Below are positions 22,369 to 43,400 of a DNA stretch of 64,000 nucleotides, in pieces; positions within the stretch are counted from its first letter, which is position 1; each line of letters opens with the position of its first letter. The DNA is from an uncultured Gemmata sp. (GTDB taxonomy: Bacteria > Planctomycetota > Planctomycetia > Gemmatales > Gemmataceae). The notes under the pieces are model-generated. The model ran no database searches, was not told the origin of the DNA, and worked only from the letters and a program-made list of their open reading frames with translations. The stretch spans positions 62,001-126,000 of the forward strand of contig CALDUT010000003.1 of the NCBI GenBank assembly GCA_937924775.1, given 5' to 3'. The position numbers and the translations under genes are program-made.

Positions 22369-24999
22369 TTACGCGGGTTGGGCCAAGTCACGCAACAGGG
22401 TCGCGACAAGTGCGGACCAGCCGGTTTGATGGCTGGCACCGCAGCCACGCCCGGTATCGCCGTGGTAGTATTCGTAAAAGAGGATGAGGTTTTTCCAGTG
22501 GGGATCGTCGGCATAGCGGCGGACATCACCGTGGCAGGGGCGTTGTCCATCAGCTCCGGGCAGAAAGAGGCGGATGAGCCGTGCGGAAAGGTCGTCGGCC
22601 GCTTCCGCGAGTGTCTTCCATTGGCCGGACCCCGTTGGCACTTCAACGCGGAAATCGCCTTCATAGTAGCGGGCATATTCTCGGAGCGACTCGATGATCA
22701 GAAAATTCATCGGGAACCACACCGGCCCACGCCAGTTGGAATTACCGCCAAACATGCCGTTGTCGGCTTCGCCTGGCACATACGCGACGACATGATCTTC
22801 CTCATTTCGGTGCCACACATAAGGTTTTTCCGCATGAACGCGAGAAAGCGAGCGGACACCACAGGGGGAGTAGAACTCATTTTCCGCAAAAAGATACTGG
22901 AAAAGCCGTTCCAAGCGGTTGCGGTTGGGCAAGGTCAAAAGATAGTAAGGCCGATCGAGAGGTGCATCGGCCCCTTGGAGGTCCAGATAGCCCAGAATCT
23001 CCGAGCGGTGCCGGACAAACCATTGCAGACGCCGGCGAAACTGCGGCAGTTTCTCCAAGGTTTCGCGGGGTAACAGTGTGACGGCAAACAGGGGAACAAG
23101 CCCGACAATGGACCGCACCTTGAGCGGAATCAATTGCCCGTCGAGGTGGAGGTGATCGTAATAGAAACCGTCGTCTTCATCCCAAAGCCCTGTGCCATCG
23201 AGCGTATTGATGGCATGGGCAATCGCGACGTAATGTTCCAGGAATTTGCTGGCCATATCTTCATAGGCCGCGTCCTCGAGGGCCAATTCGAGAGCGATCG
23301 CCAGCATTTCCCGGCAGAAGAAGGCCATCCACGCGGTACCGTCAGCTTGTTCGAGGTGCCCCCCGGTGGGCAGCGGATGAGAACGATCGAACACGCCGAT
23401 ATTATCGAGGCCGAGAAACCCGCCCGAAAATAAGTGCTTGCCAGTGTAGTCTTTGCGGTTCACCCACCAGGTGAAATTGAGAGCCAGCTTGTGGAAGGCG
23501 CGTTTCAGAAAGGTTTTATCGCAGCGACCGTCGCGCTCGTAAACGCGACGGCACGCCCACGCATGCACCGGGGGGTTGACATCCGCAAAATTGAATTCGT
23601 AAGCCGGCAGTTGCCCGTTGGGATGTTGGTACCAATCCCGCAGAAAGCGGAGAAGCTGATCTTTCGCGAACGCGGCGTCAAGATCGCTGAATGGGATCAT
23701 CTGGAAGGCCGTATCCCAAACAGCAAACCAGGGGAATTCCCACTTATCGGGCATGGAGAGAATGTCACGGGCAAACAGGTGAGGCCAATCTTGGTTCGGA
23801 TGCATGCGGTGCGCGGGAGGAGCCGGCTGCGCCGGGTCGCCGGTCAACCAATCACGGACATGGTAGTAGTAGAACTGCTGGGTCCAAATCAGGCCTGCAT
23901 TCGCCTGGCGGAATACCAGACTTTCCGCGTCGCTCAAGTGTGGGGCGAGGGCATGGTAAAATTCATCGGCTTCCGCAATCCGTTGCGCGACAGTTTGCTC
24001 AAACGATTCTCCAAAAGCCGGTTCGCCCAAGTCTGCCCGGCGTAAGCGCAGGCGCACGGTTGCCGTTTGGCCCGGTGCCAACTCCAAGCGGTAAACCGCG
24101 GCGGCTTTCGTTCCGCGTTCGGCCGGGTTGATGGCCTCGTCGCGGCCGTGGATGAGCCATTCGTGAAAGGCATCCTTCACATAGGGGTTGTCGTTGGCGA
24201 CGTTGAAAAGCCGGGCTTGGTTCGTTTCGTTATCGGTGAATAGCCATCGCGGGGAGCCTTCCGCGTCCAGACGATAGCGACCGAGGGTGGCGTGTTCCGC
24301 AATCACGGCGTCGCCGTCCCGCCACAGTTGTGGCCGCCCCCAGTCTTGTTCGTAGCCACCGCCCCAACTCCAGGTATTGCGGAACCACAGAGTCGGTAAG
24401 ACATGGATTGTTGCGGGGTTAGGTGAATGGTTGGTTAAGTTCAAGCGGATGAGCAGATCGTGGGGGCTGGCTTTCGCATATTCGGCCATCACATCGACAT
24501 AGCCCGCCTCGAACACCCCAGTATCAGTGATTTCAAACTCTGGCTCATGAAAACCACGCTCCGCGTTCCGCTGCACCAGCTCCGCGTAGGGATAGGCCTG
24601 CAGCGGATACTTGTAGAGGCCTCGCAGATAGCTGGCCGTGGGGGTGGCGTCCAGATAATAATATAGTTCTTTGACATCCTCCCCGTGATTGCCCTCGGGA
24701 TTGGAGAGACCAAAGAGCCGTTCCTTCAAAATCGGATCGACGCCATTCCACAGGGCGAGGGCAAAACACAGTCGGCATTCGCGATCGGTGATCCCCAACA
24801 GTCCATCTTCACCCCAACGATATGCCCGGCTGCGGGCCTGCTCGTGTGGGAAGGATTGCCAGCTCTGCCCGTTTTCGGAATAGTCCTCACGGACAGTCCC
24901 CCATTGCCGCTCCGACAAATACGCCCCCCAGAGTTTCCACTCCTCGGGATTGTCCGCGGCCGCTGCCATGCGTTGACCTTCGGCGGTATGGGCTGCCAT
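22369..24999 (-). CDS. GH63-like glucosidase (MGH1-type)
   Basis: Intracellular-looking alpha-glycosidase of the mannosyl-oligosaccharide glucosidase-like (MGH1/GH63) family, 876 residues, with no signal peptide. The N-terminal beta-sandwich region (about 1-350) precedes an (alpha/alpha)6 barrel containing WFAVWDTAFQMIPF and the conserved NSNWRGPVWFPMNFLIIE segment. ATG 24999 follows a strong GGGGAGGT. Bacterial relatives act on glucosylglycerate, mannosylglycerate or oligosaccharides; which applies here cannot be read from sequence. It lies in the same direction as the sulfatase gene, 210 bases upstream of it. Confidence 0.88.
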   Translation of the reverse strand: MAAHTAEGQRMAAAADNPEEWKLWGAYLSERQWGTVREDYSENGQSWQSFPHEQARSRAYRWGEDGLLGITDRECRLCFALALWNGVDPILKERLFGLSNPEGNHGEDVKELYYYLDATPTASYLRGLYKYPLQAYPYAELVQRNAERGFHEPEFEITDTGVFEAGYVDVMAEYAKASPHDLLIRLNLTNHSPNPATIHVLPTLWFRNTWSWGGGYEQDWGRPQLWRDGDAVIAEHATLGRYRLDAEGSPRWLFTDNETNQARLFNVANDNPYVKDAFHEWLIHGRDEAINPAERGTKAAAVYRLELAPGQTATVRLRLRRADLGEPAFGESFEQTVAQRIAEADEFYHALAPHLSDAESLVFRQANAGLIWTQQFYYYHVRDWLTGDPAQPAPPAHRMHPNQDWPHLFARDILSMPDKWEFPWFAVWDTAFQMIPFSDLDAAFAKDQLLRFLRDWYQHPNGQLPAYEFNFADVNPPVHAWACRRVYERDGRCDKTFLKRAFHKLALNFTWWVNRKDYTGKHLFSGGFLGLDNIGVFDRSHPLPTGGHLEQADGTAWMAFFCREMLAIALELALEDAAYEDMASKFLEHYVAIAHAINTLDGTGLWDEDDGFYYDHLHLDGQLIPLKVRSIVGLVPLFAVTLLPRETLEKLPQFRRRLQWFVRHRSEILGYLDLQGADAPLDRPYYLLTLPNRNRLERLFQYLFAENEFYSPCGVRSLSRVHAEKPYVWHRNEEDHVVAYVPGEADNGMFGGNSNWRGPVWFPMNFLIIESLREYARYYEGDFRVEVPTGSGQWKTLAEAADDLSARLIRLFLPGADGQRPCHGDVRRYADDPHWKNLILFYEYYHGDTGRGCGASHQTGWSALVATLLRDLAQPA

Positions 25000-26261: not shown

Positions 26262-26269
26262 ATGGGGAG

Positions 26270-26344
26270 TCGGGCTGACTGGATTTGAACCAGCGACCTC
26301 TTGGTCCCGAACCAAGCGCTCTAGCCAAACTGAGCTACAGCCCG
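26270..26344 (-). tRNA. tRNA-Pro (anticodon CGG)
   Basis: A complete 75-base cloverleaf can be folded by hand. Acceptor CGGGCUG pairs with CAGCCCG (26271-26277), discriminator A at 26270, D arm GCUC/GAGC, anticodon arm CUUGG-UUCGGGA-CCAAG giving anticodon CGG for the proline codon CCG, a 5-base variable loop, and T arm GCUGG-UUCAAAU-CCAGU. The CCA end is not encoded. It sits among decayed sequences with no integrase or duplicated 3' end visible. Confidence 0.95.
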
Positions 26345-27114: not shown

Positions 27115-30100
27115 ATGACGTACCTCCTCTTGGCTGACTTCACTCCCTGGCTGGCCGCCGGAGCCGCCGCTGCGGCCATCGGCGTACCATTGATTATCCA
27201 TTTGTTGTTTCGCAAACGGTATCAGATTGTGCCATGGGCGGCGATCCGTTTTTTGATGGTCGCCGAACGACGACACAAACGCCGCATTGACCAATGGTGG
27301 TTGCTCATTCTCCGGGCTGCGGCCTTGTCCCTTCTGCTCTTGGCCATGGTCGCACCGACCGAATGGGCCGAACGGCTCTGGCAAGCCATCCGACCCGGCG
27401 CGACCGACATTATTGCCAACGTACCGCGAACACACCATGTGATGGTGTTCGATGCCTCGCTGAGCATGACTGCCAAGACCGAAGACGGCCGGTCGCGCTG
27501 GGATGCGGCCATCGCTCAGGCCGAGAATCTGATCGAGTCGAGCAACCGGGGCGATGGCTTCACACTCGTGTGGCTGGCCGGTAGTGCCCAGGTGATCGTT
27601 CCCGGACCCTCCAACGACCCCGAGAAAGTGCGGGCGGAACTGCGGAAGCTGCGCCCCACCCACGGCCCGGCCGATCACACCGCTGTCCTGCCCGTGGTCG
27701 ATGATATCCTCAAACGTTCACCGTATGCTTATCCACGGCGGCAGGTTACCTTTTTCACCGATTTGCAACGCTCCTCGTGGGTGAACGCCTTGCCGCGAGC
27801 GGAATCTCCGACCACGGAATTGTGGCAGCGGATCACCGCCCGTGCCGATGTGGCGATTGTGGATACCGCCCGCAGCGACCCTGACAATCTCGCCATTGCC
27901 GAGATAACCTTGTCGGACCCAATGCCGCTGGTGGATCAACCGGTCACGGTGACGGTCACGGTGGTCAATTTCAGCCGGGTGGAGAAGAAGAAGGTCCGCA
28001 TCGATCTTTATCTGGGTCGTCCTTCCAGTGGCGCGGACGCGTTGGCTGCAGTCGAGCAGCAAGAGTTTGACCCAATTCCGCCGGGGGCACGCGCCAGTGT
28101 GAAATTCGAGCTGATCGGTCCGAATACGTTCCGCGACCGGGGCGTGCATGTCATTCAAGCGAAACTCACGCAGGCGGATGCCCTGACGGCCGACGACAGC
28201 CGGGCACTGGCCGTGGAAGTCCGCGATGGCATTCACATGCTGTTGGTTGATGGCAAGGCCCACCCCGAGTGGGACCGCCGGGCGGCCACATTGTTGCACC
28301 ATGCGCTCTATCCGCCGGACGCCAAACCCCACATGACGCCCAATCGGCCGCGGTCGGTCACGCCCACGGAGTTTGTGGACCCGAATGTGGCCGATTTGGC
28401 CAATGTCGATGGCCGGGGCAGTGCGGTCGACGGCGTCTTCTTCTGCGATGTTCTCTATCCCACCGCGGATATGGCGGCCAAGCTCGAAGCGGTGTTGCGG
28501 CGTGGCGGAACGGTGGTCATCGGCTTAGGGCCCAATGCCGCGGCCAGCCGTGAGCAATACAACGCCGTGTTTTATCGCGATGGCGACGGGATACTTCCGG
28601 CACCGCTGGGAGAAGTGGTCACGGCCGAACCGGATCGTTTCTTCCGCCTGGCGGCGGCCGACGAAGACTACCGCAAACCACCTCTGGTGTTCTTCAACGA
28701 CGACCGCATCCGCCCCGGGTTGATCAACGTTCCTTTCACCTCGTACATCCGGCTCGATTTGCCGGCGGAAGGCCGCGGGCGCCGCCTGATGACTTTCACC
28801 CGCGCCGACAGTCCCGACACGAAACCCGATCCCAACGCTAAACCCGATGCCGCGATCGTGGAGTGGCCGCGCCATCGGGGCCGGGTCTACGTCTACACCA
28901 GCACCTTCAATCGCGATTGGACCAGCTGGCCGGCGTTGCGAAGCTATCTCCAGTTCTGGCATGAATTCGTCCGCTACTCGGTGGCCAATCCAGATCGGCA
29001 CACCCTGCGTGTCGGTGAACCCATCGAGGAATTCTTCCCAGCCAGTGCCGCGGGATTGACCGCGGGGCTCAATGGCCCGGAGGGTCTAACTGCCGAAATA
29101 CCGCTGCTTTTGCAAGATGAAGCTGGCGTGGCCCGTTTCACCAACACCGCGATCAGCGGACTGTATCGCATGGGCTTAGGGGGGGCACGGGATCGGGTTT
29201 TCGCCGTCAACGTGGCCGAGATTGTCCCTGGGGCACCCACGGAATCCGATCTTCGCACCATCGACGCCAACGACTTCAAATCCCTCAGTGGTGTGCAGAT
29301 CGTCCCAGATGCGCTGGATGTCAAACCATCTAGCGAAAGCGGGGCGGTGGTGACTACCAAGCCCAAACCCCACGGCCCGTGGATTGCGCGCATCGCCGTC
29401 GTGTTAGCGGTGGTGCTATTGGTCGCAGAACTACTGGTGGCGTGGCGTTCGGGCCCGGCCCGCACCAGCGCGGTCTCTCCTCCGGTACCGAAAACCATCG
29501 GTCGGCGGCTGTTACGCGGGATGGGCAATGGGGCCGCCAGCGTGCCTCTGGTGATAGGAGCTTTCATTCTGGCCACGGTGTGGCATGCGGAATCGACGGG
29601 TGACCCACTCGGGTTTCTCCCCCATGGAATCCGTACCACACTCGAAAACGCTGCCGGAGTTCCTGCCGCAGCCCCGGGCGAAGGCACCAAATGGCGGCTT
29701 GAAGGTCTCACCGCCTTTTTCCGCAACTCCGTCACTGATCGCCGCGTCATCGTCACGCTGGCTTTGGCATGTGTCGTGCTGACGGTTGTCATCTATGGGT
29801 TGGAACGGCGGGTGGCTGGTGGAGCCGGCCGCGTGGTCCTGCCGATGCTGCTACGCTCGTGTACGTTCCTGTTGGCCCTGCTGGTTGTGCTGCCACAATT
29901 GCGGCTGGCGTTTGACCGCGAAGGATTACCCGAGGTGGTGATTCTGCTCGACACCTCCGCGAGTATGGCTACTGTGGACAACTTCAAAGACCCGGCACTT
30001 CAACAAAAAGCTCGCGAACTCGCCGGCACCACCAACTTCGCCGAATTGACACGCCTCCGCTTAACGCAACTGTTGCTTCTACGCCCAGATGCCGATTGGC

Positions 30101-32139
30101 TCGAGAAACTTTTGCGCGAAAAGCAGGTGAAAGTCCACATTTATACGGTCGATGTGCACACACGGATGCTAACGCTGATCGAAGATGAATCGTCCCTGGC
30201 CGAGAGTCGTGAAGTCCTCGCGAGCCTGAAGGCCGAAGGCGACGGTTCTCACCTGGGCGACGGAATCCAGGCCGTGCTGAAAGCCTTCCGCGGCAGTTCC
30301 CTGGCCGGCATCATCATGTTCACCGATGGTGTTACCACCAGTGGCGACGATCTGCCCAAAGCCGCTCGTGCCGCGGCTCTCGATGGTGTGCCCTTGTATC
30401 TCGTCGGTGTCGGTGACACCTGGGAAACGCCGGATTTGGCCTTAACCGACCTGCAAGCCGACGATGTCGTCGGGCGGGGTGACCGGCTGGCGTTGGAAGC
30501 CCGACTGACGGCTCGCGGCGAAGTGCCCCCGGTTCCAGTCACGGTCTTCCTGAAAGAAAAACTTCCCGATGGTCGGATCGAAGATCGCGCGCAGACCACG
30601 GTCACACCCGATCCGTCGGGCCATCCGGTCACGGTTTCCATCGCCTACACCCCGATGGAAACGGGGGAACGCACGTTTATTCTCGAAGTCCCTGCGGTCG
30701 CCGGCGAAACCAACACTCGCAACAATCGCCTCGAACGCACCGTGCTGGTCACCGATTCCCGGCGGATTCGCGTATTGTATGTGGAGGGCTACCCGCGGTA
30801 CGATTTCCGTTTCGTCAAAGTCCTGCTGGAACGGGAATCCGACAAATCGATCGGCGGTAAATCCGTCGAAGTGCAGGTGGTGTTGCTGGATGCGTCCAAG
30901 GGGTGGGCGGAAACGGATCGTTCTGCCTTCCGGGGCGAATTCCCCACACGGACAGAACTGTTCGGCTTCGACGTCATCATTCTGGGGGATATCGATCCCA
31001 AGGAGATCGGCGGAACGCGCTCCTCAGTAATTCTGCGCGACATTGTCGACTTTGTCAAACAAAAAGGAGGCGGATTACTGTTTTTGTCGGGTCAACACGG
31101 TACGCCAGCGGCCTATGCCGAGACGCCCTTGTCGGAAATCCTCCCGGTGGTGCCCAGTGCCCCCCCCGCGACCAGTCGCTCGCCCGAAGAACAGCCGCTT
31201 ACGGAGGGGTATCAACCCAAGCTGACGGCGGCGGGGCGTTTGCATCCGCTGTTCCGTTTCGCCGCCGATGAAGCCGAGTCGGCTCGGATTTGGAATCAAC
31301 TGCCTCCCTTGTACTGGGCGGCCACTGGCTATCGCCGCAAACCGCTGTCGAATGTCTTGGCGGTGCATCCCCAGCTACCCGCCGATGGCGGCGCACGCGG
31401 GGAGAATCACCCGCTGGTGATCCAACAATTCGCCGGTGCCGGGCCGGTGTTGTTCTTCGGCTTCGACGACACCTGGCGCTGGCGGTTCCGCAATAACGAA
31501 GAGCATTTCGACCGTTTCTGGATGCAAGCCATGCGGGTTTTGGCCCGTTCCCGGGTCCGCCGACCCGAGTTGCGCGTGGCCCCCAAAGCCGAATTCCGCC
31601 GCGATGAGAAAATCACCGTTCAAGTTCGCTTCCCCATCGAAGCCCCAGCCCCCGCCGGCGATACACCGGTGCGCGTCGCGGTCAACCGCTCGCCATTGCT
31701 GCAGGCCGACGGCAGCCCGGGTCCGGGTACCACCGAAACCGGCACGTTGATTCTCTATCGGGTGCCAGGGCCGACCATACAGTTTGAAGGCACCCTCACC
31801 CGGGCCCCCGAAGGCGAATACCGCTTCGAATTGATCGATCATGACATTCCTGGCACACGCCCTGTGGCCACCGCGCGGGTGCTCCCGCCATTGAATGAAC
31901 GTGATCGCCTCGAAATGAACCGCGCCGATATGATCACCGCTGCCAACGATTCCGGCGGTCAATTCTACACCCTCGCCACCGCGATGGAAGTATTCGACGA
32001 CCTGAAAAACCTCGAACGCGTCCCCCTGAATCAACCCTGCAAACCAGTGGAATTGTGGAACCAACCTGCGGTTTATGCCCTGTTGATATTCCTCCTGATG
32101 AGCGAATGGCTCTTACGCAAACGGGAACGGCTATTATGA
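27115..32139 (+). CDS. giant membrane protein: fused BatA/VWA and VWA/GATase-like units
   Basis: A 1674-residue envelope protein of unknown exact role. Order: BatA-type N-terminus with two TM helices (about 9-30 and 60-80); VWA domain 1 with a degenerate MIDAS (MVFDASLSM, about 110); a Rossmann/glutamine-amidotransferase-like part (LLVDG..., VVIGLGPNA, about 375-480); a TM at about 757; then TMs near 808, 877 and 908; VWA domain 2 (VVILLDTSASM, about 943); a second GATase-like domain (RVLYVEGYPRYDFRF, about 1217, with LLFLSGQHG near 1320); and a C-terminal TM (about 1650). So the protein is a fusion of two BatA/VWA-type proteins that usually occur as neighbours. It begins a four-gene operon. 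The ATG lacks an obvious ribosome-binding site. Confidence 0.88.
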   Translation: MTYLLLADFTPWLAAGAAAAAIGVPLIIHLLFRKRYQIVPWAAIRFLMVAERRHKRRIDQWWLLILRAAALSLLLLAMVAPTEWAERLWQAIRPGATDIIANVPRTHHVMVFDASLSMTAKTEDGRSRWDAAIAQAENLIESSNRGDGFTLVWLAGSAQVIVPGPSNDPEKVRAELRKLRPTHGPADHTAVLPVVDDILKRSPYAYPRRQVTFFTDLQRSSWVNALPRAESPTTELWQRITARADVAIVDTARSDPDNLAIAEITLSDPMPLVDQPVTVTVTVVNFSRVEKKKVRIDLYLGRPSSGADALAAVEQQEFDPIPPGARASVKFELIGPNTFRDRGVHVIQAKLTQADALTADDSRALAVEVRDGIHMLLVDGKAHPEWDRRAATLLHHALYPPDAKPHMTPNRPRSVTPTEFVDPNVADLANVDGRGSAVDGVFFCDVLYPTADMAAKLEAVLRRGGTVVIGLGPNAAASREQYNAVFYRDGDGILPAPLGEVVTAEPDRFFRLAAADEDYRKPPLVFFNDDRIRPGLINVPFTSYIRLDLPAEGRGRRLMTFTRADSPDTKPDPNAKPDAAIVEWPRHRGRVYVYTSTFNRDWTSWPALRSYLQFWHEFVRYSVANPDRHTLRVGEPIEEFFPASAAGLTAGLNGPEGLTAEIPLLLQDEAGVARFTNTAISGLYRMGLGGARDRVFAVNVAEIVPGAPTESDLRTIDANDFKSLSGVQIVPDALDVKPSSESGAVVTTKPKPHGPWIARIAVVLAVVLLVAELLVAWRSGPARTSAVSPPVPKTIGRRLLRGMGNGAASVPLVIGAFILATVWHAESTGDPLGFLPHGIRTTLENAAGVPAAAPGEGTKWRLEGLTAFFRNSVTDRRVIVTLALACVVLTVVIYGLERRVAGGAGRVVLPMLLRSCTFLLALLVVLPQLRLAFDREGLPEVVILLDTSASMATVDNFKDPALQQKARELAGTTNFAELTRLRLTQLLLLRPDADWLEKLLREKQVKVHIYTVDVHTRMLTLIEDESSLAESREVLASLKAEGDGSHLGDGIQAVLKAFRGSSLAGIIMFTDGVTTSGDDLPKAARAAALDGVPLYLVGVGDTWETPDLALTDLQADDVVGRGDRLALEARLTARGEVPPVPVTVFLKEKLPDGRIEDRAQTTVTPDPSGHPVTVSIAYTPMETGERTFILEVPAVAGETNTRNNRLERTVLVTDSRRIRVLYVEGYPRYDFRFVKVLLERESDKSIGGKSVEVQVVLLDASKGWAETDRSAFRGEFPTRTELFGFDVIILGDIDPKEIGGTRSSVILRDIVDFVKQKGGGLLFLSGQHGTPAAYAETPLSEILPVVPSAPPATSRSPEEQPLTEGYQPKLTAAGRLHPLFRFAADEAESARIWNQLPPLYWAATGYRRKPLSNVLAVHPQLPADGGARGENHPLVIQQFAGAGPVLFFGFDDTWRWRFRNNEEHFDRFWMQAMRVLARSRVRRPELRVAPKAEFRRDEKITVQVRFPIEAPAPAGDTPVRVAVNRSPLLQADGSPGPGTTETGTLILYRVPGPTIQFEGTLTRAPEGEYRFELIDHDIPGTRPVATARVLPPLNERDRLEMNRADMITAANDSGGQFYTLATAMEVFDDLKNLERVPLNQPCKPVELWNQPAVYALLIFLLMSEWLLRKRERLL

Positions 32140-32174
32140 TGAACAAGAGACAATAGCCGGCAGGAGCAACGTGT

Positions 32175-35100
32175 ATGCCCTTGGTTCTCCACACGCCGTT
32201 CGAACGTGTATCGCTGACCGATCGGCTGGCCGAGTTAGGCCGATCGCGCAAACGCACCGCCATCGCCAGCGGGGTGTTCACCTTCCTGGCGACCCTCATC
32301 GGCCTCACCACACTCGCCGGTGTGGCCGATGCGGCGTGGCACTGGGCCCCGGTGTATCGGGCCCTGGCTCTGGTACTGATCCTGACGGCGGCGGGCGTCG
32401 TTTGGCTTCGCAGCGTGGCTTGCCCCTGGCGCTATCGCACCGATGCCCTGTCGATGGCCTTGGAGTTGGAAGAACGGTTTGCGACCTTCAACGATTCGCT
32501 CGCGTCGGCGGTGTCGTTCCTGGCGGCGGACGCGGAACCGAAACCACCCGGTGTTTCCAATCGTTTATTGCAAACGGCTGTTCGCCTGGCGGAACGCAAA
32601 GCCGCCCGGTTACCGATCGACAACATTGTTCCGTCGGGGGCTTTCTGGCGGTCGTTCTGGCTGACAATGTTGGTGCTGATGGTGTCGGTACCACTGGTAT
32701 TCTGGGACAGCAGCCGCGCAGCAACCGCTTTCATTCGCCTGGCCGACCCCTTCGGTTCTCACCCGTGGCCCACCAAGACGCAGGTCGAAATCCTCGTTCC
32801 CGAGTTCCCGATACGCATCGCCAAGGGTGATGCCCTGGATGTCAAATTCGCCGTTCGCGGGGTTTTGGCGGGCCCTGCCATCTTGCAGGTGCGCGTCACC
32901 GACGGTGGCGAATTCGAGGCCGTCTTCCCTCTGGCATTGAACAACGACCTGGATTACCCCGGTGCGGCGGTGGTGGAAACTCGCCTCGACGGTGCCCGCC
33001 TGGCCAATCACTTCGCCATCCGGATTCTGGCGAACGACGCCGATACTGGCTGGCATGACATCACGGTTGTTCCTCCGCCGCGGTTGGTCCCGCTTGATGG
33101 TCGCCCCTCGCCGCAGATCGTTGCGTGGCGGCCCGCGTACACGAACGTGCCCTCAGGGAGCTTACCCGACGGGGCCGCGGTCATCGAAGTCCCCGTGGGA
33201 ACCCGCTTGCAGTTTCAAGCGGCCACTGATGTGCCTTTGTCCGCGGCCGTGCTAACGTACATTGGTGATCGGTCGAACGTGAGTCGGGGGGCTTCGATCA
33301 TTCCTGTGGGGCATTGGCACCCGCTGGCAGCGCTCGGTCTTCAGCAGATGGCCGAGCAATTCACCGCCGATATTCCACTGGTCATCTCGGGCGATCGAAC
33401 CCGAATCGCAGTCCATTTCACCCCGCTGTTATCCGGCACTTACGCCCTGAAACTGACAGACACTACAGGGCTGACCGGAACGCAATTGCTGGAAATCCGG
33501 CTCACGCCCGATCCGGTGCCCACGGTGGTTCTCACACGGCCGCTGGCCGGTTCGGATCCGCCCCTTTTGACTCCCACCGCGAACCTCCAGCTCCAAGCTA
33601 CCGCGGATGATTCACTCTACGGGCTTCGCTCACTGTTTGTGGAATATCGGACATGCTCCGATGGCCCGGTGCGCACACTGCCTTTAGCGAAAGTACCCAA
33701 CGTTTCGCCCAGCGCGTTGGCGATGCTCGCCGGCGGGCCCCTCGTGGCCGATATTCCTCCTTCAGGCATCGTATCGGTGAATCGTTCGATCCCAGTAGCC
33801 CACTTCGTGCGAGACGACGGCCGACCGGTCCGCGAAGGCGATCGGCTCATCCTCCGCGCAGCGGCTAATGATTGGGACGATGTTTCTCCACTCAAAGGTC
33901 CGGGGCGCAGTACCGCGGAGGTGGAAGTTCGTATCGCCGCGCCGGAAGTCATCGAAGCGTGGTTACAGCGGGAATTAGCGGCGCTGCGCCCGGAATTGAT
34001 CCGATTGCGCGAGCAGCAACGCGACGCCAAAGACAAAGTCACAAACGTTGAAGTTCCTCCGGGGGGCATGCTGGGCTCGGCCGAACGTGATCAACTCGTC
34101 ACGGCCGAACGCATCCAACAACAGCTCCGCGGCAAAATGGCCGACCCGCGCGACGGCTTGCGAGCCCGGGCCGAACTTCTCCGCGCTACTGTTGCAACTA
34201 ACAACCTTCCCAAATCCCACACCACCGAACGGGTTGAGGTGGTCGCCTCAGAATTGGGCCGCTTGGTCGAACGCGATTTACCCACCGCCGAGCAGAACCT
34301 CGCCAACGCCCGGCAACTGGGTAGTCAGCCCCCAAGACCCGAACAGGAGGACCTTCTTCGCGATGCCCTCCGGCGTACAGCCCGGCATCAGAAGAATATC
34401 GAGGATACCGCAACGGCCCTTTTGGATCTGCTGGCTCAATGGGGCGGCGCGGGGGAAATCCGCGGCGAAGCCCGCGTTCTCCGCGATGCTCTAGTGCGGC
34501 AACTGGCCGAACAGGAACAACTCAAGGATCGGGTTTCCGAAGGGAAATTGAAACCCAGCGCTGAAGAACAAGCACAGTTGAACCGTGCAGCGGCTAAAGT
34601 GGAACCAATAGCCGAACAAGCCGGGCAGCTCATTGGCCGCGCGGCGAATTTGGCACGCGAAAAAGACAAACAAGCGGCCGACCTGCAAACCCAAGCGGCC
34701 GCCAAAGAAGCCACCGCCATCCAACTTCACCAACACGCTGCAGAAACCGCCAATCCACTGGAAAAATCCAACCTTCAGGCCCAGGCAGCCGCCGCTCATG
34801 CAGCGGCGGAAGAACTCCGCCACGCCGCTCGCCAAGCTGAAGCCGAAGCCACCGCGCTCCGCCAGGGCATCGCGGCCGCCAATGGCCAAGGCTTGGCCGA
34901 CGACATCCGCCAAGCCGCGAGTGCCCTCCGCAACAACCAACAAGCGGCAGCGAATACAGCCCTGCAGGCCGCTGTAAAACGGCTGGAGGCTCTGGCCGAA
35001 GCTCTGACGGAAAAATCTGCCGATACGGTCCCCGAGCTGGCCAAGCCCAAAGCCCTCAAGGCCAATGCCGACGAGCTAAACGCCCTTGCCGATGCCCAAG

Positions 35101-36155
35101 ACAAACTCCGCCAAAAAGCGGAAGCTGCGGCTCGAATCGCCGAGGCCGACCAACGCCAAGCTGCCCTCAAGGAATTGGTCCCCGAGCAAGAACGCCTCAT
35201 CAACCGCGGCCGAGAACTGCTACAGCGGCTCACTCGCGAACGGGCTGACGACGCCGCCCGCGATCTCCGCGCGGCGCTGGATAAAATGGAAACGGCCCGC
35301 GACGACCTCGAAAAAGGCCTTCCGGCCAACCGCGCCCAAGCGGAAGCCGTGGATCAACTCGATGTCGGTCGCGACAAACTCGATGTGGCCGCCGAACACG
35401 CCGGGCGGCAACTGTCCGACGAAAAACGTCGCCAGTTGGTCGATGTGGTAAAATCCTTACTCGAACGCCAAAAGGCTGCGGTGGACGAAGCGCAGCGCAT
35501 TCATTCGGAAGTCGCCAAAGAACAGGGTTGGAGCCGCTTGCTCCTCACCAGCTACGCGGATCTAGAATCCCTTCGGATCAACGAGATCGCGACTGAACTG
35601 CAAAAAGTGGCTGCCGCGGAGTTCCAAGCGTTCCCGGTTTTCGCCCGCTTGCTCACCGAAGCCGCTCAGGCCAACAATCGCGCCCGCGAGATCATCCAGC
35701 GCCGCTGCGACGATGCCGATCTGGCGGCCGCCTTCGACGCCGAACTCGAAACCGCCCTCGACCGCAAGGCCATGCGGCCGCTAGAGCTCGCCCTGCGTCG
35801 TCTGCAACAACTCACCGACGCCCTCCAACCCGATGAACCGAAAAAACAACCCGGCTCGCCCCCCCCAGCGCCGCAACAGCCTCAACCCGCCCCCCCCAAT
35901 CCCGAGGCGGGGCGCGAAGCCGACCTCGTTCCACCGTTAGCTCAACTGAAGGTGCTTCGAGCCTTGCAAGCGGAACTCAATGACCGCACTGCGGAATTCG
36001 CCAAACAACACCCTGACGTAACTCAGCTCACCGACGAAGACAAAGCCGAGTTACGCGAACTTCACCAAGCGCAAACCGAGATTGCCGAACTCTTTGAACA
36101 ACTGGCGCGAATGATGAAAAAAGACGCCACCCCCCCAGAACCGGAGAAACCCTGA
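32175..36155 (+). CDS. large membrane-anchored coiled-coil protein (DUF4175-like)
   Basis: 1326 residues. Two N-terminal TM helices (about 33-55 and 62-80) are followed by a third near 155-175, then beta-rich sandwich-like domains (about 200-590) and a very long Ala/Gln/Glu-rich helical region (about 600-1230) predicted to form coiled coil, ending in a Pro-rich patch and a final helix. The layout resembles DUF4175-type proteins encoded beside BatA/VWA genes in planctomycetes; I cannot assign a biochemical role. AGGAG lies 9 bases before the ATG. The next gene overlaps its stop (ATGA), so the two are translationally coupled. Confidence 0.85.
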   Translation: MPLVLHTPFERVSLTDRLAELGRSRKRTAIASGVFTFLATLIGLTTLAGVADAAWHWAPVYRALALVLILTAAGVVWLRSVACPWRYRTDALSMALELEERFATFNDSLASAVSFLAADAEPKPPGVSNRLLQTAVRLAERKAARLPIDNIVPSGAFWRSFWLTMLVLMVSVPLVFWDSSRAATAFIRLADPFGSHPWPTKTQVEILVPEFPIRIAKGDALDVKFAVRGVLAGPAILQVRVTDGGEFEAVFPLALNNDLDYPGAAVVETRLDGARLANHFAIRILANDADTGWHDITVVPPPRLVPLDGRPSPQIVAWRPAYTNVPSGSLPDGAAVIEVPVGTRLQFQAATDVPLSAAVLTYIGDRSNVSRGASIIPVGHWHPLAALGLQQMAEQFTADIPLVISGDRTRIAVHFTPLLSGTYALKLTDTTGLTGTQLLEIRLTPDPVPTVVLTRPLAGSDPPLLTPTANLQLQATADDSLYGLRSLFVEYRTCSDGPVRTLPLAKVPNVSPSALAMLAGGPLVADIPPSGIVSVNRSIPVAHFVRDDGRPVREGDRLILRAAANDWDDVSPLKGPGRSTAEVEVRIAAPEVIEAWLQRELAALRPELIRLREQQRDAKDKVTNVEVPPGGMLGSAERDQLVTAERIQQQLRGKMADPRDGLRARAELLRATVATNNLPKSHTTERVEVVASELGRLVERDLPTAEQNLANARQLGSQPPRPEQEDLLRDALRRTARHQKNIEDTATALLDLLAQWGGAGEIRGEARVLRDALVRQLAEQEQLKDRVSEGKLKPSAEEQAQLNRAAAKVEPIAEQAGQLIGRAANLAREKDKQAADLQTQAAAKEATAIQLHQHAAETANPLEKSNLQAQAAAAHAAAEELRHAARQAEAEATALRQGIAAANGQGLADDIRQAASALRNNQQAAANTALQAAVKRLEALAEALTEKSADTVPELAKPKALKANADELNALADAQDKLRQKAEAAARIAEADQRQAALKELVPEQERLINRGRELLQRLTRERADDAARDLRAALDKMETARDDLEKGLPANRAQAEAVDQLDVGRDKLDVAAEHAGRQLSDEKRRQLVDVVKSLLERQKAAVDEAQRIHSEVAKEQGWSRLLLTSYADLESLRINEIATELQKVAAAEFQAFPVFARLLTEAAQANNRAREIIQRRCDDADLAAAFDAELETALDRKAMRPLELALRRLQQLTDALQPDEPKKQPGSPPPAPQQPQPAPPNPEAGREADLVPPLAQLKVLRALQAELNDRTAEFAKQHPDVTQLTDEDKAELRELHQAQTEIAELFEQLARMMKKDATPPEPEKP

Positions 36156-37006
36156 TGCGCTGGCTGATATCACTTCTTGGAATGGGTGCCGGGATGGCCC
36201 TGACCACCCCGCCTGCGCCGGGCGAACCGCCTGTCGCCCCCATGCCCCGCGAGATCCGCCCTGATGGTTCGCGTGAACCCGCAGCAGCGGCCGAAAATCC
36301 TTCCCCCCCGGAAGACCCCGCCGTGGTGATCGAACGCATCATTCAAAATTCCAAACAGGTGGGGGAAAAACTCGCCCAAAGCGACACCGGCACGCAAACA
36401 CGCCTTACCCAAAGCCAAATTCTCAAAGACATCGACGCCCTGATCAACCGGCAAGACGAGCCACCGCCTCCACAGAATAACATGACAAATCCGGATTCCC
36501 AGCAACAGCCGATGAACAAAGACGACAACCCGAACAATCAGGATAACAAGTCTAACAAAAACGATATGCCCATGGGCGACGGTGTGGACAATAACGCGGG
36601 GATGCCCATGAACAGCATGAACGACATGCCGCCACGGCCGATGGGCGAGGCCCGCCGACCTCGCCGCGGCGACCCCAATAGCACCGCAAACAAAGACCCG
36701 GCCCCTGGTATGGAATCTGAGCCGATGAAAAATCCGAAAACCGCTCAGAACCCCGAGAAAAAAGAGCCCACGGGTTCATTCGCGGTAACCGGTGGCCAAC
36801 CCGGCGGTAAAATCGCGCCCAAATCGTTATTGCCCTTCGAAGACGACGTGGCCAAAGATGTCTGGGGGCATTTGCCCGATAAACTTCGGCAACAGATGAC
36901 CCAATACTACCGCGAAGACGTAACCCCCAAATATTCTGAACTCCTACGGCTGTATTACTCTTCCCTCTCAGAGAAAACCACCAGCCCCGCACCGCCGCGG
37001 AAGTAA
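36155..37006 (+). CDS. secreted low-complexity protein of the VWA operon
   Basis: 283 residues, no known domain. A short hydrophobic N-terminus (MRWLISLLGMGAGMALT) looks like a signal peptide. A helical segment with RIIQNSKQVGEKLAQ and SQILKDIDALINRQ (about 60-110) is followed by a long Asn/Met/Asp/Pro-rich low-complexity linker (about 110-210) and a conserved-looking C-terminal domain (DVWGHLPDKLRQQMTQYYRE, LLRLYYSSLSE). The start overlaps the stop of the 1326-residue protein gene. Proteins with this C-terminal pattern accompany the BatA/VWA cluster in planctomycetes; function is unknown. Confidence 0.8.
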   Translation: MRWLISLLGMGAGMALTTPPAPGEPPVAPMPREIRPDGSREPAAAAENPSPPEDPAVVIERIIQNSKQVGEKLAQSDTGTQTRLTQSQILKDIDALINRQDEPPPPQNNMTNPDSQQQPMNKDDNPNNQDNKSNKNDMPMGDGVDNNAGMPMNSMNDMPPRPMGEARRPRRGDPNSTANKDPAPGMESEPMKNPKTAQNPEKKEPTGSFAVTGGQPGGKIAPKSLLPFEDDVAKDVWGHLPDKLRQQMTQYYREDVTPKYSELLRLYYSSLSEKTTSPAPPRK

Positions 37007-37157
37007 TCCGTCCAGGGGTGCTGGCTTGACGCTCCCCCGGTAAAGCGGATGAGTGGTCCTCGCAGACGGACTCTTCTCGGCCCTGACAGTCCCAGATTGG
37101 TAACTCACAGATTCGACGAAGCGTCACAAATCGCGAGTCACGATTGGAGGTCGACTG

Positions 37158-38309
37158 ATGTTGCGGCAACACCCAAGCATCTCCCGCCGCGATTTCCTCC
37201 GTGCCTCGACGACGGTAGGGCTAGCAGGTAGTCTCAATTGGATCGGGGCCGCCCAACCACCCAGGGCCGCCCCGGTCAGCCCCCCTTCCGACACCGGGGC
37301 TGAGTTCATCAACACCGAAACGCAAATTGCCATCGATCGCGGCTTGAATTATCTCGCCCAAGCGCAAAACAGCGACGGTTCGTTCGCCGAACGCGCCAGT
37401 GGGACAAGTGCCGGCATCACGGGTCTGTGCGGCTTAGCGCTTCTGGGAGCTGGTCACCAACCGGGTCGCGGCAAGTTTGCCCGGCAGGTCAGCCGTGCTG
37501 TCGATTATGCCCTCGATCTGGCCCGAGGCAATACGCCGGGGTTCCTGACCGCCGGCGGGGGGCCGATCACCCGCTTAGGCAATCAGCCCAGTGCCATGTA
37601 CAGCCACGGCTTCATGAGCCTGTTTTTAGCGGAAGTCTGCGGCATGTTACCCGATCCGCAGCGGCAAAAGAAGGTCCGGGCTTTGCTCGAGCAGGCCACC
37701 GCGTTTTCTGTCGCCGCGCAGAACAAAGAAGGCGGCTGGCGTTATGAACCGCAGGCCGCCTACGCCGATGTCTCGGTGACCGTGGCCATCATGATGGCAT
37801 TGCGAGCGGCCCGCAATGCCGGGGTTTTCGTTCGGAAAAACGTCATCCGCGATGGTTCCCGCTACATTCGGGAATGTCAGATGCCTGATGGCGGCTTCAG
37901 CTATTTCCGCAGCCAGAATCAAGGATTTTCGGCCTTCGCCCGCACCGCGGCGGCCATTGTCGGGCTGTACAGTGCTAGTGTCCCCGAAGATGAAGACGTC
38001 AACGCCAGAGCCATTCAACGCGGATTACGCTACTTGCAACAGTTCACACCAGGCCGGCAGTTCAACCAACGCGAAATCCCGCCCCAACACTACTACTACG
38101 GTCAGTACTACGCGGCGCTGGCCATGTGGACCGCCGGCGGCGATTACTGGCGACGGTGGTTCCCCGCCATTCGCGACGAACTGCTCAACCGCGCCCGCAA
38201 TAGTAGCGGCATCTGGAGCGATCAATACCACGGCAGTGCCTATGCCACCGCCATGAGCCTCATCATTCTCCAACTGCCCAACAACTACCTGCCGATTCTT
38301 CAGAAGTAA
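37158..38309 (+). CDS. Tat-exported prenyltransferase/squalene oxidase-repeat protein
   Basis: 383 residues. Begins with a twin-arginine signal (SRRDFLRASTTVGLAG) followed by an alpha/alpha-barrel of squalene-cyclase/prenyltransferase-type repeats: GLNYLAQAQNSDGSF, TGLCGLALLGAG, KEGGWRYEPQ, YIRECQMPDGGFSYF, YYYGQYYAALAMW. The catalytic DxDD of squalene-hopene cyclase is not present, so this is likely a non-enzymatic or protease-inhibitor-like/terpenoid-toroid protein rather than a hopanoid synthase. A perfect GGAGGT stands 8 bases before the ATG. It closes the operon with the VWA genes, which suggests a shared envelope role. Confidence 0.88.
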   Translation: MLRQHPSISRRDFLRASTTVGLAGSLNWIGAAQPPRAAPVSPPSDTGAEFINTETQIAIDRGLNYLAQAQNSDGSFAERASGTSAGITGLCGLALLGAGHQPGRGKFARQVSRAVDYALDLARGNTPGFLTAGGGPITRLGNQPSAMYSHGFMSLFLAEVCGMLPDPQRQKKVRALLEQATAFSVAAQNKEGGWRYEPQAAYADVSVTVAIMMALRAARNAGVFVRKNVIRDGSRYIRECQMPDGGFSYFRSQNQGFSAFARTAAAIVGLYSASVPEDEDVNARAIQRGLRYLQQFTPGRQFNQREIPPQHYYYGQYYAALAMWTAGGDYWRRWFPAIRDELLNRARNSSGIWSDQYHGSAYATAMSLIILQLPNNYLPILQK

Positions 38310-40419: not shown

Positions 40420-43400
40420 ATGATTCGCTACCTGATTGCCTTCCTCCTCACTACGGCCACCAGCCTCACCGCAACGGCACAAAATGATACGACCGCCATC
40501 GAAAAGCCGTTAGTTGTGTGGACGTTTGACGCTCCCGGCGAACCGGGGGTGTCTCCGGCGACCGCGAAGTTCTTTGAACCGGGTCCGCGTCCGCCGATCT
40601 ACCCCCATTTCGAGGCCTGCAACACTGCGATGGCCTTTACAGCCGCCAACAGCCGTTTGACTGTCCGCGCGGCGGATCTGCCCCACACTAATTTGCGTTT
40701 TGGCCTGAACGATTCCATCACTTTGGAAGCCTGGGTGAAAGTGGGGGAATTGAAAGACGGTCAGTACGCCTACATTCTCGGGAAAGGGAGAAACCGTAAG
40801 CCGGGATACCCGGAATTGAATCAAAATTACGCGCTGCGGCTCATAGGGGACAAAGGCGAGGTCAAAGTTTCGTTTCTGTTTGCCAGCGCTCCAGACAAGA
40901 ATCAACCCGCCCAATGGCACCGGTGGACCACGACCAAGGGTTTCCGCTCCGGTGGCTGGCACCACGTCGCGATCAGCTATACTTTTGGTCGTCCAGAGAG
41001 CATCCGCGGCTTCATCGATGGAGAATTGCACAAGGGAACGTGGGACATAGGGGGGCCGACGACACGGGCCCCCGTGCAGGATGACGACGACCTCACGCTG
41101 GGTAGCGGCAATGGGGGTGGTGCCGGCAACTCTTTTCGGGGTTGGCTGGATCATGTCGTCATTTGGCGAACCGCATTGCCTGAGAGTGAGTTGAAGAATC
41201 GCTACCAATTTGTCCCGCCACCGCCGGTAGTGAAACGCGCAGACCTGCCCAAGGGCGAGATTCTCGTTCAATTGTGTGAAGAAGGTTTGCCCACCCGGAA
41301 TGCCTGGCCGGAAATTCCCCCTCCGGCCACAGAGAGCTATCGCGAAGAGTGCTTTGGCTTCTTTGAGGTGCCCCAGAAATACGTCGATAGCGGCGTTCGG
41401 GGCGATCGAGCCAATCCCTTTTTATTCCGGGCCGCCGCTGTTGTGTCGTTGCCCCCGGGCAAACACCGGCTGTTACTCCGCGGCCGTGGTGCTGCTCGCC
41501 TTTACATCGACAACCAACTCTTGCTGACGACACCATTCCCGCCGCCAGGAAGTGATGGTCACCATCTGGTTCGCAAGCCCGAAAGCTACCTCAATCTCGG
41601 CCCGGATTTCCGGTTCGCCCCGCCAGGTAACCGCGAAGCGTGGACCCACTTCGAATCCCCCGGCGGTGAGCATCTGGTGGTTTTGGAGACGATTGTCGGC
41701 TTCTACCTGGGGAATTCTCGACGGCGGCCGGAGTTGGGCGAGACCGTGGTCGCCGTGGCCTTCGAGGGTCGCGATGCGTGGCAGTTATTAACCCCCACCC
41801 CGCGTGTTGTTCCCTACACCGATGAGGGATGGGCCAAATACGAAGCGGAACGTACGACGCGGTTGGAGGCCATGAATGCCGCGGCGCGGGCGGCCAAGCG
41901 GGCAGAACATGCCGACTATTGGAATAAACGCCGTCAGGTCGCTCAACAGTGGCTGGCGGAAACGCCGGAGGAGAAAGTACCGACACTGCCGGAGGGCTAT
42001 CCAGCGCACAATCCCATCGACCATTTCCTGGCCCTCAAGATCGAGCAATACCGGCAACAAGCAGCGGCCCCGCCTGGTTCCGTGGATTTCTACAAACAGA
42101 TCCACCCGATTTTGGAAGCCAAATGTTCCGGGTGTCACATCGGCAACAAGCCCAAAGCGGGACTGCGGCTCGATAGCCGAGCGGCCGCACTGCGCGGCGG
42201 CAAAAGCGATGGCCCGGGGATCACCCCCGGAAAACCCGAGGAAAGCTCAATTCTCGCGCGTGTGAAGGCCAACGACGACACCGTGATGCCCCCGAAAGGC
42301 GATAAGTTGACGGCCGAGGAGATCGCGCTTCTAGAGACGTGGATTCAGCAGGGGGCCCGGTGGCCCGACCTCAACGCCGATCATACCACTCTCACACCAC
42401 TGTGCGACGATATGACTTTCTTGCGTCGTGTCACCCTCGACACGGTGGGCGTTGTGCCAACCCTTGAGGAAATTCGCGCCTTTCTGGCCGATCGCACACC
42501 CAATAAGCGGGCCCAGGTCATCGATCGGCTGCTCGCCGATCCGCGTTGGGCGGATCATTGGATGGGCTATTGGCAAGACGTCTTGGCCGAGAACCCGAAC
42601 ATCATCAATCCGACCTTGAACAACACTGGCCCGTTCCGCTGGTGGTTATACGAATCCTTTCGCGACAACAAACCGCTGGACTTATTCGTCACCGAATTGT
42701 TGCGGATGCGGGGCAGTACGCGTTTTGGCGGCCCGGCGGGCTTTGCTGTCGCCTCGCAAAACGATGTGCCTATGGCGATGAAGGGTACGGTAGTGGCGGC
42801 GGCGTTTCTGGGAGTTGAAATGAAGTGTGCCCGCTGCCACGATGCCCCGGCCCACGCGTCAACGCAGAAGGAACTTTTCCAACTGGCCGCGATGCTCGCC
42901 ACACAGCCGGTGAAGCTCCCGGCCTCTAGCAGCGTCCCCCTCGATAAGTTTCACGATGGCGGCCGCTCCCCGTTGATTCGTGTCACCCTGGCCCCCGGCA
43001 GCAGCGTCGACCCGAAATGGCCGTTTGAACAGTTCGCTCCCGCCGATCTGGGCCCCACCCTCGCCCAATACCCCGACGATCCCCGCGACGTCCTCGCCGC
43101 TCTCATCACCGCCCCCCACAATGAACGCTTTGCCCAAGTGATGGCCAATCGGATCTGGCAGCGTCTCATGGGGCGGGGCATCGTCGAACCGGTGGAAGAT
43201 TGGGAACGGGGACGGCCGTCGCACCCTGAGTTACTCCGCTGGCTGGCCCGCGAACTGGTCCGCAGTGGCTACGACGTCAAACACTTGACACGCCTGATTC
43301 TCAATTCGCATGCCTACCAACGGGCGGCCGATCCGGACCTCCCAGAAACTCCGGTCCTCTTCACGGCGCCGGCGCGCCGCCGGCTGACCGCTGAACAGAT

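What the first reader, a model, noticed from the sequence alone, without database searches (positions are those of the whole stretch)
27115..38309. BatA/VWA giant fusion heading an operon that lacks MoxR and DUF58
The first gene reads as two neighbouring proteins joined end to end (TM-VWA-GATase-like, repeated), 1674 residues. In planctomycetes the usual cluster is MoxR ATPase - DUF58 - BatA - VWA - DUF4175-like - small protein - terpenoid-toroid protein. Here the first two are missing directly upstream, where instead a decayed region and a tRNA lie. The machine may have been relocated or its ATPase supplied in trans.
Basis: partly seen in the sequence, partly recalled or inferred. Interest (0 to 1): 0.6.

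Follow-up and report, generated by a model that had tools for sequence, protein, structure and literature searches.

The report
Fused membrane protein, scattered operon
Two neighbouring membrane proteins of a bacterial MoxR/VWA machine were joined into one giant protein in an ancestor of the Gemmata family, apparently with a new membrane-spanning segment at the joint that keeps both halves the right way round, and the genes for the machine's motor were later moved elsewhere in the genome rather than lost.

Summary
The 1674-aa fusion is real and not a sequencing error. It arose once: 54 of 55 rows of one clade (Gemmataceae) are fused and all 17 outgroup rows are separate genes. The halves are full-length homologues. 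Fused proteins show four hydrophobic spans at the joint, unfused pairs three. Charges and an AlphaFold model agree that a transmembrane helix was gained there. Both halves are predicted N-out/C-in, so a direct join would turn the second half over.

MoxR and DUF58 are not missing. Orthologues lie with a PQQ-propeller gene at G000:C8:218940-224914. In basal Gemmataceae and five other families they still precede BatA. That link changed at least six times on the tree, once before Gemmata diversified. The tRNA beside the fusion recurs within the genus, so it marks an old junction. Sampled paralogous clusters show no fusion and mostly stay in order.

Topology, trans action and cellular role are inferred, not shown.

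The parts
27115..32139 (+). fused BatA-VWA gene, 1674 aa
   Evidence: single frame; Pfam BatA, VWA_2, VWA; 54 of 55 rows of the clade fused
27115..29484 (+). BatA half (residues 1-790): two N-terminal spans (13-31, 62-80), VWA, beta domains, last span 757-775
   Evidence: hydropathy, Pfam, model of residues 1-965
29533..29589 (+). extra hydrophobic span at the joint (residues 807-825; helix 795-828 in the model)
   Evidence: absent from the 17 outgroup rows
29662..32136 (+). VWA half (residues 850-1674): two spans (878-896, 907-925), VWA, CARDB-like and GATase1-like domains, C-terminal hydrophobic segment
   Evidence: homologous to the BatA half
32175..36155 (+). large coiled-coil protein, 1326 aa, three hydrophobic peaks
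   Evidence: no Pfam family; peaks; conserved next to the fusion or VWA gene in many relatives
36155..37006 (+). small low-complexity protein, 283 aa, hydrophobic N-terminus
37158..38309 (+). toroid (squalene-cyclase/prenyltransferase-like) protein, 383 aa, with Tat-type signal match
26269..26344 (-). tRNA-Pro(CGG), divergent neighbour at the old break
   Evidence: same place in G012, G011, G002, G017, G015

Best explanation
This is the envelope half of a known kind of MoxR/VWA (Bat-like) machine. Its two homologous membrane subunits, BatA and VWA, were fused once in the ancestor of Gemmataceae while MoxR and DUF58 were still beside them. Each subunit is N-out/C-in with its VWA domain on the periplasmic side (inferred from hydropathy and charge), so a direct join would have turned the second subunit over; a new transmembrane helix at the joint (residues 807-825) restores the topology. 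Later the cytoplasmic part of the operon (MoxR ATPase and a soluble VWA-containing DUF58, with a PQQ-propeller gene) was unlinked, in the Gemmata lineage before the genus diversified, and survives as a separate cluster (own C8:218940-224914). Proposed working: a MoxR ring with cytoplasmic DUF58 as its VWA adaptor acts in trans on the membrane-anchored BatA-VWA pair and its envelope partners. Shown by sequence: fusion, single origin, extra hydrophobic span, orthologous partner genes elsewhere. Inferred: topology, trans action, function.
For: Fusion: one frame, 54 of 55 rows fused against 17 of 17 separate. Extra span: 4 peaks in 53 of 54 fused rows and 5 in one; 3 in 17 of 18 separate rows, the other (4 peaks) being L201, which belongs to the fused clade. 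Net charge per residue: unfused BatA tail +0.165, unfused VWA N-terminus -0.045; in fused rows +0.130 before and -0.019 after the extra span. Separate model helices 754-779, 795-828, 872-901, 905-925. Halves homologous over 680 columns, E 5.9e-19. Partners: own C8 DUF58 and MoxR fall in clades with the copies adjacent to the fusion in relatives (33 rows, 98/97, 28 rows, SH-aLRT 96). PQQ-MoxR-DUF58 keep together in most genus genomes. G019 and G032 show neither the fusion nor the C8-type genes. Borrelia BB0173, a BatA-type protein, has its VWA domain mapped to the periplasm (PMC5700661, passages).
Against: No biochemical evidence of interaction. Nine MoxR-type ATPases over 200 bits exist in this genome, so another could serve the fusion. 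G036 MoxR falls outside the 28-row clade although its gene is adjacent, and in the first DUF58 tree long-branched and C13-type paralogues fell among Gemmataceae rows. Hydropathy counting is crude: the C-terminal segment passed the threshold in only 13 of 22 rows. For the loci with no DUF58 upstream I did not check that DUF58 exists elsewhere in their genomes. G006 shows the fusion but no C8-type MoxR, DUF58 or PQQ (fragmented assembly), and G007 the reverse.
Confidence: 0.75

Rival explanations
1. The fusion is a sequencing or assembly error that removed a stop between two genes.
For: A few related loci do have frame breaks: G017, L175, L171, L201, and unfused relatives often have both genes in the same frame a few bases apart.
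Against: 54 rows from different assemblies share the fusion, with an inserted stretch that unfused pairs lack.
Confidence: 0.01
2. The added stretch at the joint is not a membrane span but a hydrophobic surface or re-entrant helix, and the topology of the two halves is different from that inferred.
For: The stretch varies in sequence and is the weakest of the four in this genome (1.76). No dedicated topology predictor was available.
Against: Its peak is 1.76-2.92 across 22 rows; it is present in all 55 rows of the clade; charges of the flanking loops fit a span.
Confidence: 0.1
3. The separated MoxR-DUF58 cluster no longer serves the fusion: the fusion works without an ATPase or with another MoxR (for example that of the intact C13 cluster), and the C8 cluster has its own job.
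For: Several complete MoxR-DUF58 clusters exist in this genome; unlinking removes any need for co-regulation.
Against: In the genus both parts are retained in most genomes after the split; G019 and G032 lack both; the paralogous clusters have their own BatA and VWA.
Confidence: 0.22
4. Adjacency in other families is secondary and MoxR-DUF58 were never ancestrally linked to this BatA-VWA pair.
For: None found beyond the many rearrangements.
Against: The same order occurs in 11 genomes of five other families and in basal Gemmataceae.
Confidence: 0.03

Closest known systems
Bat-type operon (MoxR of the MRP group, DUF58, BatA/BatB) of Bacteroidetes and spirochaetes (PMC11834572 and PMC5700661, passages seen)
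   Same: MoxR and DUF58 followed by membrane proteins with two N-terminal spans, a VWA domain and a C-terminal span; VWA of BB0173 faces the periplasm.
   Different: Here BatA and VWA proteins are much longer (CARDB- and GATase1-like domains), fused in one chain with an extra span, and MoxR-DUF58 are unlinked; toroid and PQQ-propeller genes belong to the planctomycete cluster.
Unfused MoxR-DUF58-BatA-VWA-coiled coil-toroid cluster of other planctomycete families (e.g. Planctomycetes bacterium Pan216, L206)
   Same: Orthologous genes in the same order.
   Different: Two separate genes with three spans in total at the corresponding place.
Proton-translocating transhydrogenase (PMC5742237, passages seen)
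   Same: Separate bacterial subunits versus a fused animal chain that has extra spans TM1 and TM5; TM5 lies where the E. coli subunits (TM1-4 and TM6-14) are separate.
   Different: Unrelated protein family; here the joined units are homologues of each other.
MoxR-vWA ternary conflict systems (PMC7159879, passages seen)
   Same: MoxR plus VWA logic; proposed ATP-driven remodelling of the VWA-bound partner.
   Different: There a beta-propeller is fused to the vWA component in one class; here the PQQ-propeller is a separate protein. VMAP, iSTAND and FtsH components were not searched for.

Membership tests
BatA / two-anchor family (PF07584, TIGR02226) | N-terminal double-transmembrane domain | tested here: met
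   PF07584 46.6 bits (cut-off 25.9), residues 11-81; TIGR02226 50.4 bits (cut-off 23.05); first half only
VWA domain proteins | VWA domain with conserved metal-site motif (DxSxS; motif label recalled and as in PMC5700661 passages) | tested here: met
   VWA_2 and VWA over cut-off; D113, S115, D216 and D946, S948, S950, D1071 invariant in 22 rows, S117 at 90% or more
MoxR-DUF58-BatA-VWA (Bat-type) cluster | MoxR and DUF58 directly upstream | tested here: not met
   none in 27 kb upstream in the window; orthologues at own C8
MoxR-DUF58-BatA-VWA (Bat-type) cluster | orthologous MoxR and DUF58 present in the genome | tested here: met
   trees; G036 MoxR is an exception
MoxR-DUF58-BatA-VWA (Bat-type) cluster | MoxR acts on the VWA proteins | not testable with these tools
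   needs biochemistry or genetics
MoxR-vWA-beta-propeller ternary system | beta-propeller fused to the vWA protein | tested here: not met
   PQQ propeller is a separate 1280-aa protein
MoxR-vWA-beta-propeller ternary system | MoxR of the bpMoxR type (PF20030) | tested here: inconclusive
   44.8 bits, over the cut-off of 27, but far below AAA_3 at 216.4 bits
Class I glutamine amidotransferase-like | GATase1-like fold | tested here: inconclusive
   profile matches to 2gk3, 3soz, 3rht (E 2.6e-8 to 1.8e-5) for the second half; no such match for the first half (best E 0.033, another protein)
Class I glutamine amidotransferase-like | catalytic residues | not tested
   -

The most novel reading that the evidence does not exclude
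The fusion required a topology-adapting transmembrane helix and, by locking the two envelope VWA subunits together, freed the rest of the machine from operon linkage, so that the cytoplasmic ATPase module was scattered repeatedly while its parts were kept. All 29 DUF58-BatA breaks in the tree set lie in the fused clade (29 of 53 determinable rows) and none in the 16 determinable unfused rows. This is one lineage, so cause is not shown; and unfused family f4 (G050, G054) has broken between BatA and VWA.
Probability: 0.3. Interest if true: 0.6.

Novelty: new variant of a known kind. Interest (0 to 1): 0.42.

Why it matters
No paper in the searched library holds MoxR, DUF58 and planctomycet together, though such clusters are numerous in these genomes. 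The case predicts which MoxR partners which membrane VWA protein when the genes are unlinked, separates a cytoplasmic ATPase/DUF58 module from an envelope module, and offers a conserved natural example of a membrane-protein fusion that gained a span so that both halves keep the same orientation. That can be tested directly with topology reporters.

Tried and rejected
Sequencing error or missed stop: rejected by the family-wide frame. Loss of MoxR/DUF58: rejected. tRNA as a recent integration scar: not supported, as the same tRNA-Pro recurs in the genus. Independent fusions in paralogous clusters: 16 loci fetched, none found; in L225 and L230 only the VWA gene was seen, and in L219 a 1354-aa ORF overlaps BatA in another frame and shows no BatA match. 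The open_frame_aa column suggested fusions in unfused families; direct ORF calls showed separate genes. First DUF58 tree was disturbed by long-branched paralogues; repeated without six own paralogues. Foldseek with the two models gave no whole-length match (low TM-scores; among the hits CARDB entries for the second half, and a VWA entry for the first). PHROGs gave one weak toroid match only. Paper searches gave nothing that I used; that planctomycetes keep few operons is recalled, not taken from a call.

Limits of counts. Tree: 72 of 86 loci tabulated; 14 dropped (L074=G017 and L175 for frame overlaps; L090, L129, L132, L171, L174, L178, L188, L193, L194, L204, L212, L214 with one half, a broken frame or a short fragment). 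Loci that duplicate a G genome were removed by equal contig length. J3 states of G004, G015 and G021 were set to broken by hand because DUF58 was found elsewhere. The VWA-coiled-coil count is inflated by divergence (G052 has an unmatched 1253-aa ORF in that place). In one search the PQQ-MoxR joint of G004 is printed broken because its moxR is cut by contig ends; one search shows the N-terminal MoxR part beside PQQ. The MoxR-DUF58 breaks of G020 and G035 rest on about 2 kb of contig.
Full report
OBSERVATION. The window is G000:C3:62001-126000 of a 4.79-Mb assembly in 27 contigs, 97% complete. ORF 27115-32139 is one frame of 1674 codons with BatA and two VWA matches. The next three genes are a 1326-aa coiled-coil protein, a 283-aa low-complexity protein and a toroid protein with a Tat-type signal match. 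No MoxR or DUF58 homologue was found upstream in the window; tRNA-Pro(CGG) lies at 26269-26344. The family name Gemmataceae is taken from most record titles; some MAG titles in the clade say otherwise (Isosphaera, Singulisphaera, Kuenenia, Bacteroidales).

FUSION. P0001 was searched in 59 genomes (own included), all with some match. With 73 loci from named genomes, 86 loci remained after removing duplicates, and 72 with both halves went into a tree. One clade of 55 rows (support 100) holds 54 fused rows. The exception, L201, has its frame break inside the BatA part (386 + 1266 aa) and sits on a very short branch among fused rows. All 17 outgroup rows are separate genes. The fewest changes are two: one gain plus L201. 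G017 and L175 (left out) and L171 have frame breaks too.

DOMAINS. Profile comparison of the halves gives probability 99.1 and E 5.9e-19 over 680 columns (residues 11-776 against positions 26-813), so they are homologues of one plan from the first spans to the last. In the second half a GATase1-like stretch rests on profile matches to PDB 2gk3, 3soz and 3rht and a CARDB-like domain on Foldseek matches 2kl6 and 3idu. The first half has no significant PDB sequence match (best E 0.033). Metal-site residues are invariant or nearly so in both halves across 22 rows.

THE JOINT. In unfused pairs BatA ends a few to about a dozen residues after its last span, and VWA usually has 30-45 residues before its first span. 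Counting hydropathy peaks (window 19, threshold 1.4), the joint holds 4 in 53 of 54 fused rows and 5 in one; it holds 3 in 17 of 18 separate rows, the eighteenth being L201 with 4. An earlier count gave 4 in 21 and 5 in 1 of 22 fused rows, and 1+2 in 19 of 20 unfused pairs, 2+2 in one (G050) (two of the 20 pairs are paralogues). Control: each large ectodomain gave no peak in 19 of 22 rows, while the C-terminal segment was detected in only 13 of 22. Net charges per residue over 22 fused rows and 14 unfused pairs: loop TM1-TM2 +0.259; unfused BatA tail +0.165; unfused VWA N-terminus -0.045; loop between the two VWA spans +0.217 unfused, +0.248 fused; in fused rows +0.130 before the extra span and -0.019 after it. 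By the positive-inside rule (recalled) both units are N-out/C-in with VWA outside, in line with the mapped topology of Borrelia BB0173 (PMC5700661, passages). A C-in end cannot be joined to an N-out start without one more span. AlphaFold of residues 1-965 shows separate helices 754-779, 795-828, 872-901 and 905-925 (mean pLDDT 82.3; the linker 782-793 is under 50, as is 34-56). Parallels: extra TM1 and TM5 in fused transhydrogenase (PMC5742237, passages), and an engineered glycophorin span that brings a C-terminus across the membrane (PMC4659628, passage). A review of duplicated membrane proteins describes fusions of oppositely oriented homologues, as in DUF606 (PMC3962082, passages); here the orientation is the same and a span is added instead.

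WHERE MOXR AND DUF58 ARE. The own genome has 12 AAA_3 matches, nine over 200 bits, and 11 DUF58 match pieces, two of them in one gene. The cluster C8:218940-224914 is a 1280-aa PQQ-propeller gene, MoxR and a 294-aa DUF58 with a VWA match, with no BatA or VWA gene found beside it. Eleven genomes of families f3, f5, f6, f7 and f8 have MoxR-DUF58-BatA-VWA in this order, mostly with the propeller gene before and coiled coil, small protein and toroid after (in some the contig ends or parts were not recognised). The C8 proteins were searched in the same 59 genomes (lists are capped but best-first). DUF58: a clade of 33 Gemmataceae rows (98/97) unites adjacent and dispersed copies and excludes own C13, C4 and C12. 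MoxR: a clade of 28 (SH-aLRT 96) does likewise, but G036 falls outside. On large contigs the distance is real: 2.68 Mb in G013, 2.89 Mb in G008, 0.84 Mb in G002, 0.87 Mb in G017, 0.21 Mb in G014.

DISPERSAL. By joint: DUF58-BatA is broken in 17 of 19 genus genomes and undeterminable in 2 (G006, G007); among the 16 other family genomes tabulated it is intact in 10, broken in 5, unknown in 1. MoxR-DUF58 is intact in 7, broken in 6 and unknown in 3 of those 16 (two of the breaks, G020 and G035, rest on about 2 kb of contig); in the genus 16 intact, 1 broken (G010), 2 unknown. On the tree the DUF58-BatA state (40 intact, 29 broken, 3 unknown of 72) needs at least 6 changes; one break covers a 25-row clade (23 broken, 2 unknown) with Gemmata, Limnoglobus and Fimbriiglobus records. 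The VWA-coiled-coil state needs at least 8, somewhat inflated by divergence. In unfused family f4, BatA and VWA themselves are far apart (G050: L090, L091). G019 and G032 show neither the fusion nor C8-type genes: best DUF58 there scores 257 and 244 bits, linked family copies 277 or more.

UPSTREAM REGION. tRNA-Pro(CGG) lies divergently just upstream of the fusion in 6 of 14 scanned genus loci, window included (G004 has no upstream sequence in its locus). BLAST adds G016, a 43-bp piece at the contig end of G004, and L214. It occurs in both Gemmata sub-branches of the tree (G015 against the rest), so the junction predates them. Outside the tRNA and the start of the gene the 2.1 kb gives matches only in G012 and G011 next to the tRNA and one weak 93-bp match in L144.

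CONTROL. Sixteen paralogous loci, taken from the list and so not a random sample, include no BatA-VWA fusion, and 12 of 16 keep MoxR-DUF58-BatA-VWA in order; own C13 does too. Fusion and dispersal thus look like features of this orthologous group, not of these genomes at large; own C12 is a further MoxR and DUF58 without BatA/VWA beside it.

MECHANISM. Shown by sequence: the parts, their homology, the extra span, the separate cluster. Inferred: MoxR and the soluble DUF58 form the cytoplasmic ATPase-adaptor pair; the fusion places two VWA domains in the periplasm; coiled-coil, toroid and PQQ proteins are envelope partners. MoxR-VWA pairs elsewhere remodel or load partner complexes (PMC7159879, passages; PMC9976466 and PMC13036017, listing and start of abstract only). 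In Riemerella moxR and batA deletions change stress survival (PMC11834572, passages). What this planctomycete system acts on is unknown; envelope assembly or stress repair is a guess.

NOVELTY. Papers with MoxR, DUF58 and planctomycet: 0; with MoxR, planctomycet and von Willebrand: 3, about conflict and immunity systems (listing; one read in passages). The fusion searches showed related principles, not this case, as far as listings and the passages named above show. I rate it a new variant of a known kind.

Noticed in passing
L106 (G010:C6:424600-444500): The C8-type moxR is in two parts on opposite strands about 12 kb apart (282 aa at 13.9k -, 179 aa at 1.7k +), with DUF58 near the C-terminal part: an inversion or a scaffold error.
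   Followed up: no
L090, L091 (G050) and L140 (G054): In unfused family f4 BatA stays with MoxR-DUF58 while VWA-coiled coil-small lies more than 1 Mb away: a break at the very joint that is fused in Gemmataceae.
   Followed up: partly
L075 (G025) and L158: The coiled-coil and small proteins are also joined in one ORF (1734 and 1704 aa).
   Followed up: no
L168, L203: The tail of the operon (coiled coil, small, toroid, or the last two) lies downstream of the fusion on the opposite strand.
   Followed up: no
L201, L171, L175, L074 (G017): Frame breaks inside the fused gene; in G017 the coiled-coil gene is in two pieces as well, which suggests base-call errors there.
   Followed up: partly
L056 (G000:C13:52000-71900): A paralogous cluster MoxR-DUF58-BatA-VWA with a toroid gene, unfused and in order, in the same genome.
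   Followed up: yes
L060 (G000:C4:214000-233900): A further cluster toroid-MoxR-DUF58-BatA-like (1005 aa) followed by 1252-, 1192- and 710-aa ORFs.
   Followed up: no
L052:11819-12196: The separate MoxR-DUF58 cluster is followed by a short piece matching 3-keto-disaccharide hydrolase (30.6 bits), perhaps a gene remnant.
   Followed up: no
window 40420-44097: A 1225-aa protein combining Laminin_G_3, PSCyt1, PSCyt2 and PSD1 domains.
   Followed up: no
window 22369-24999 and 20542-22158: A GH63/MGH1-like glycoside hydrolase and a sulfatase on the minus strand upstream of the tRNA.
   Followed up: no
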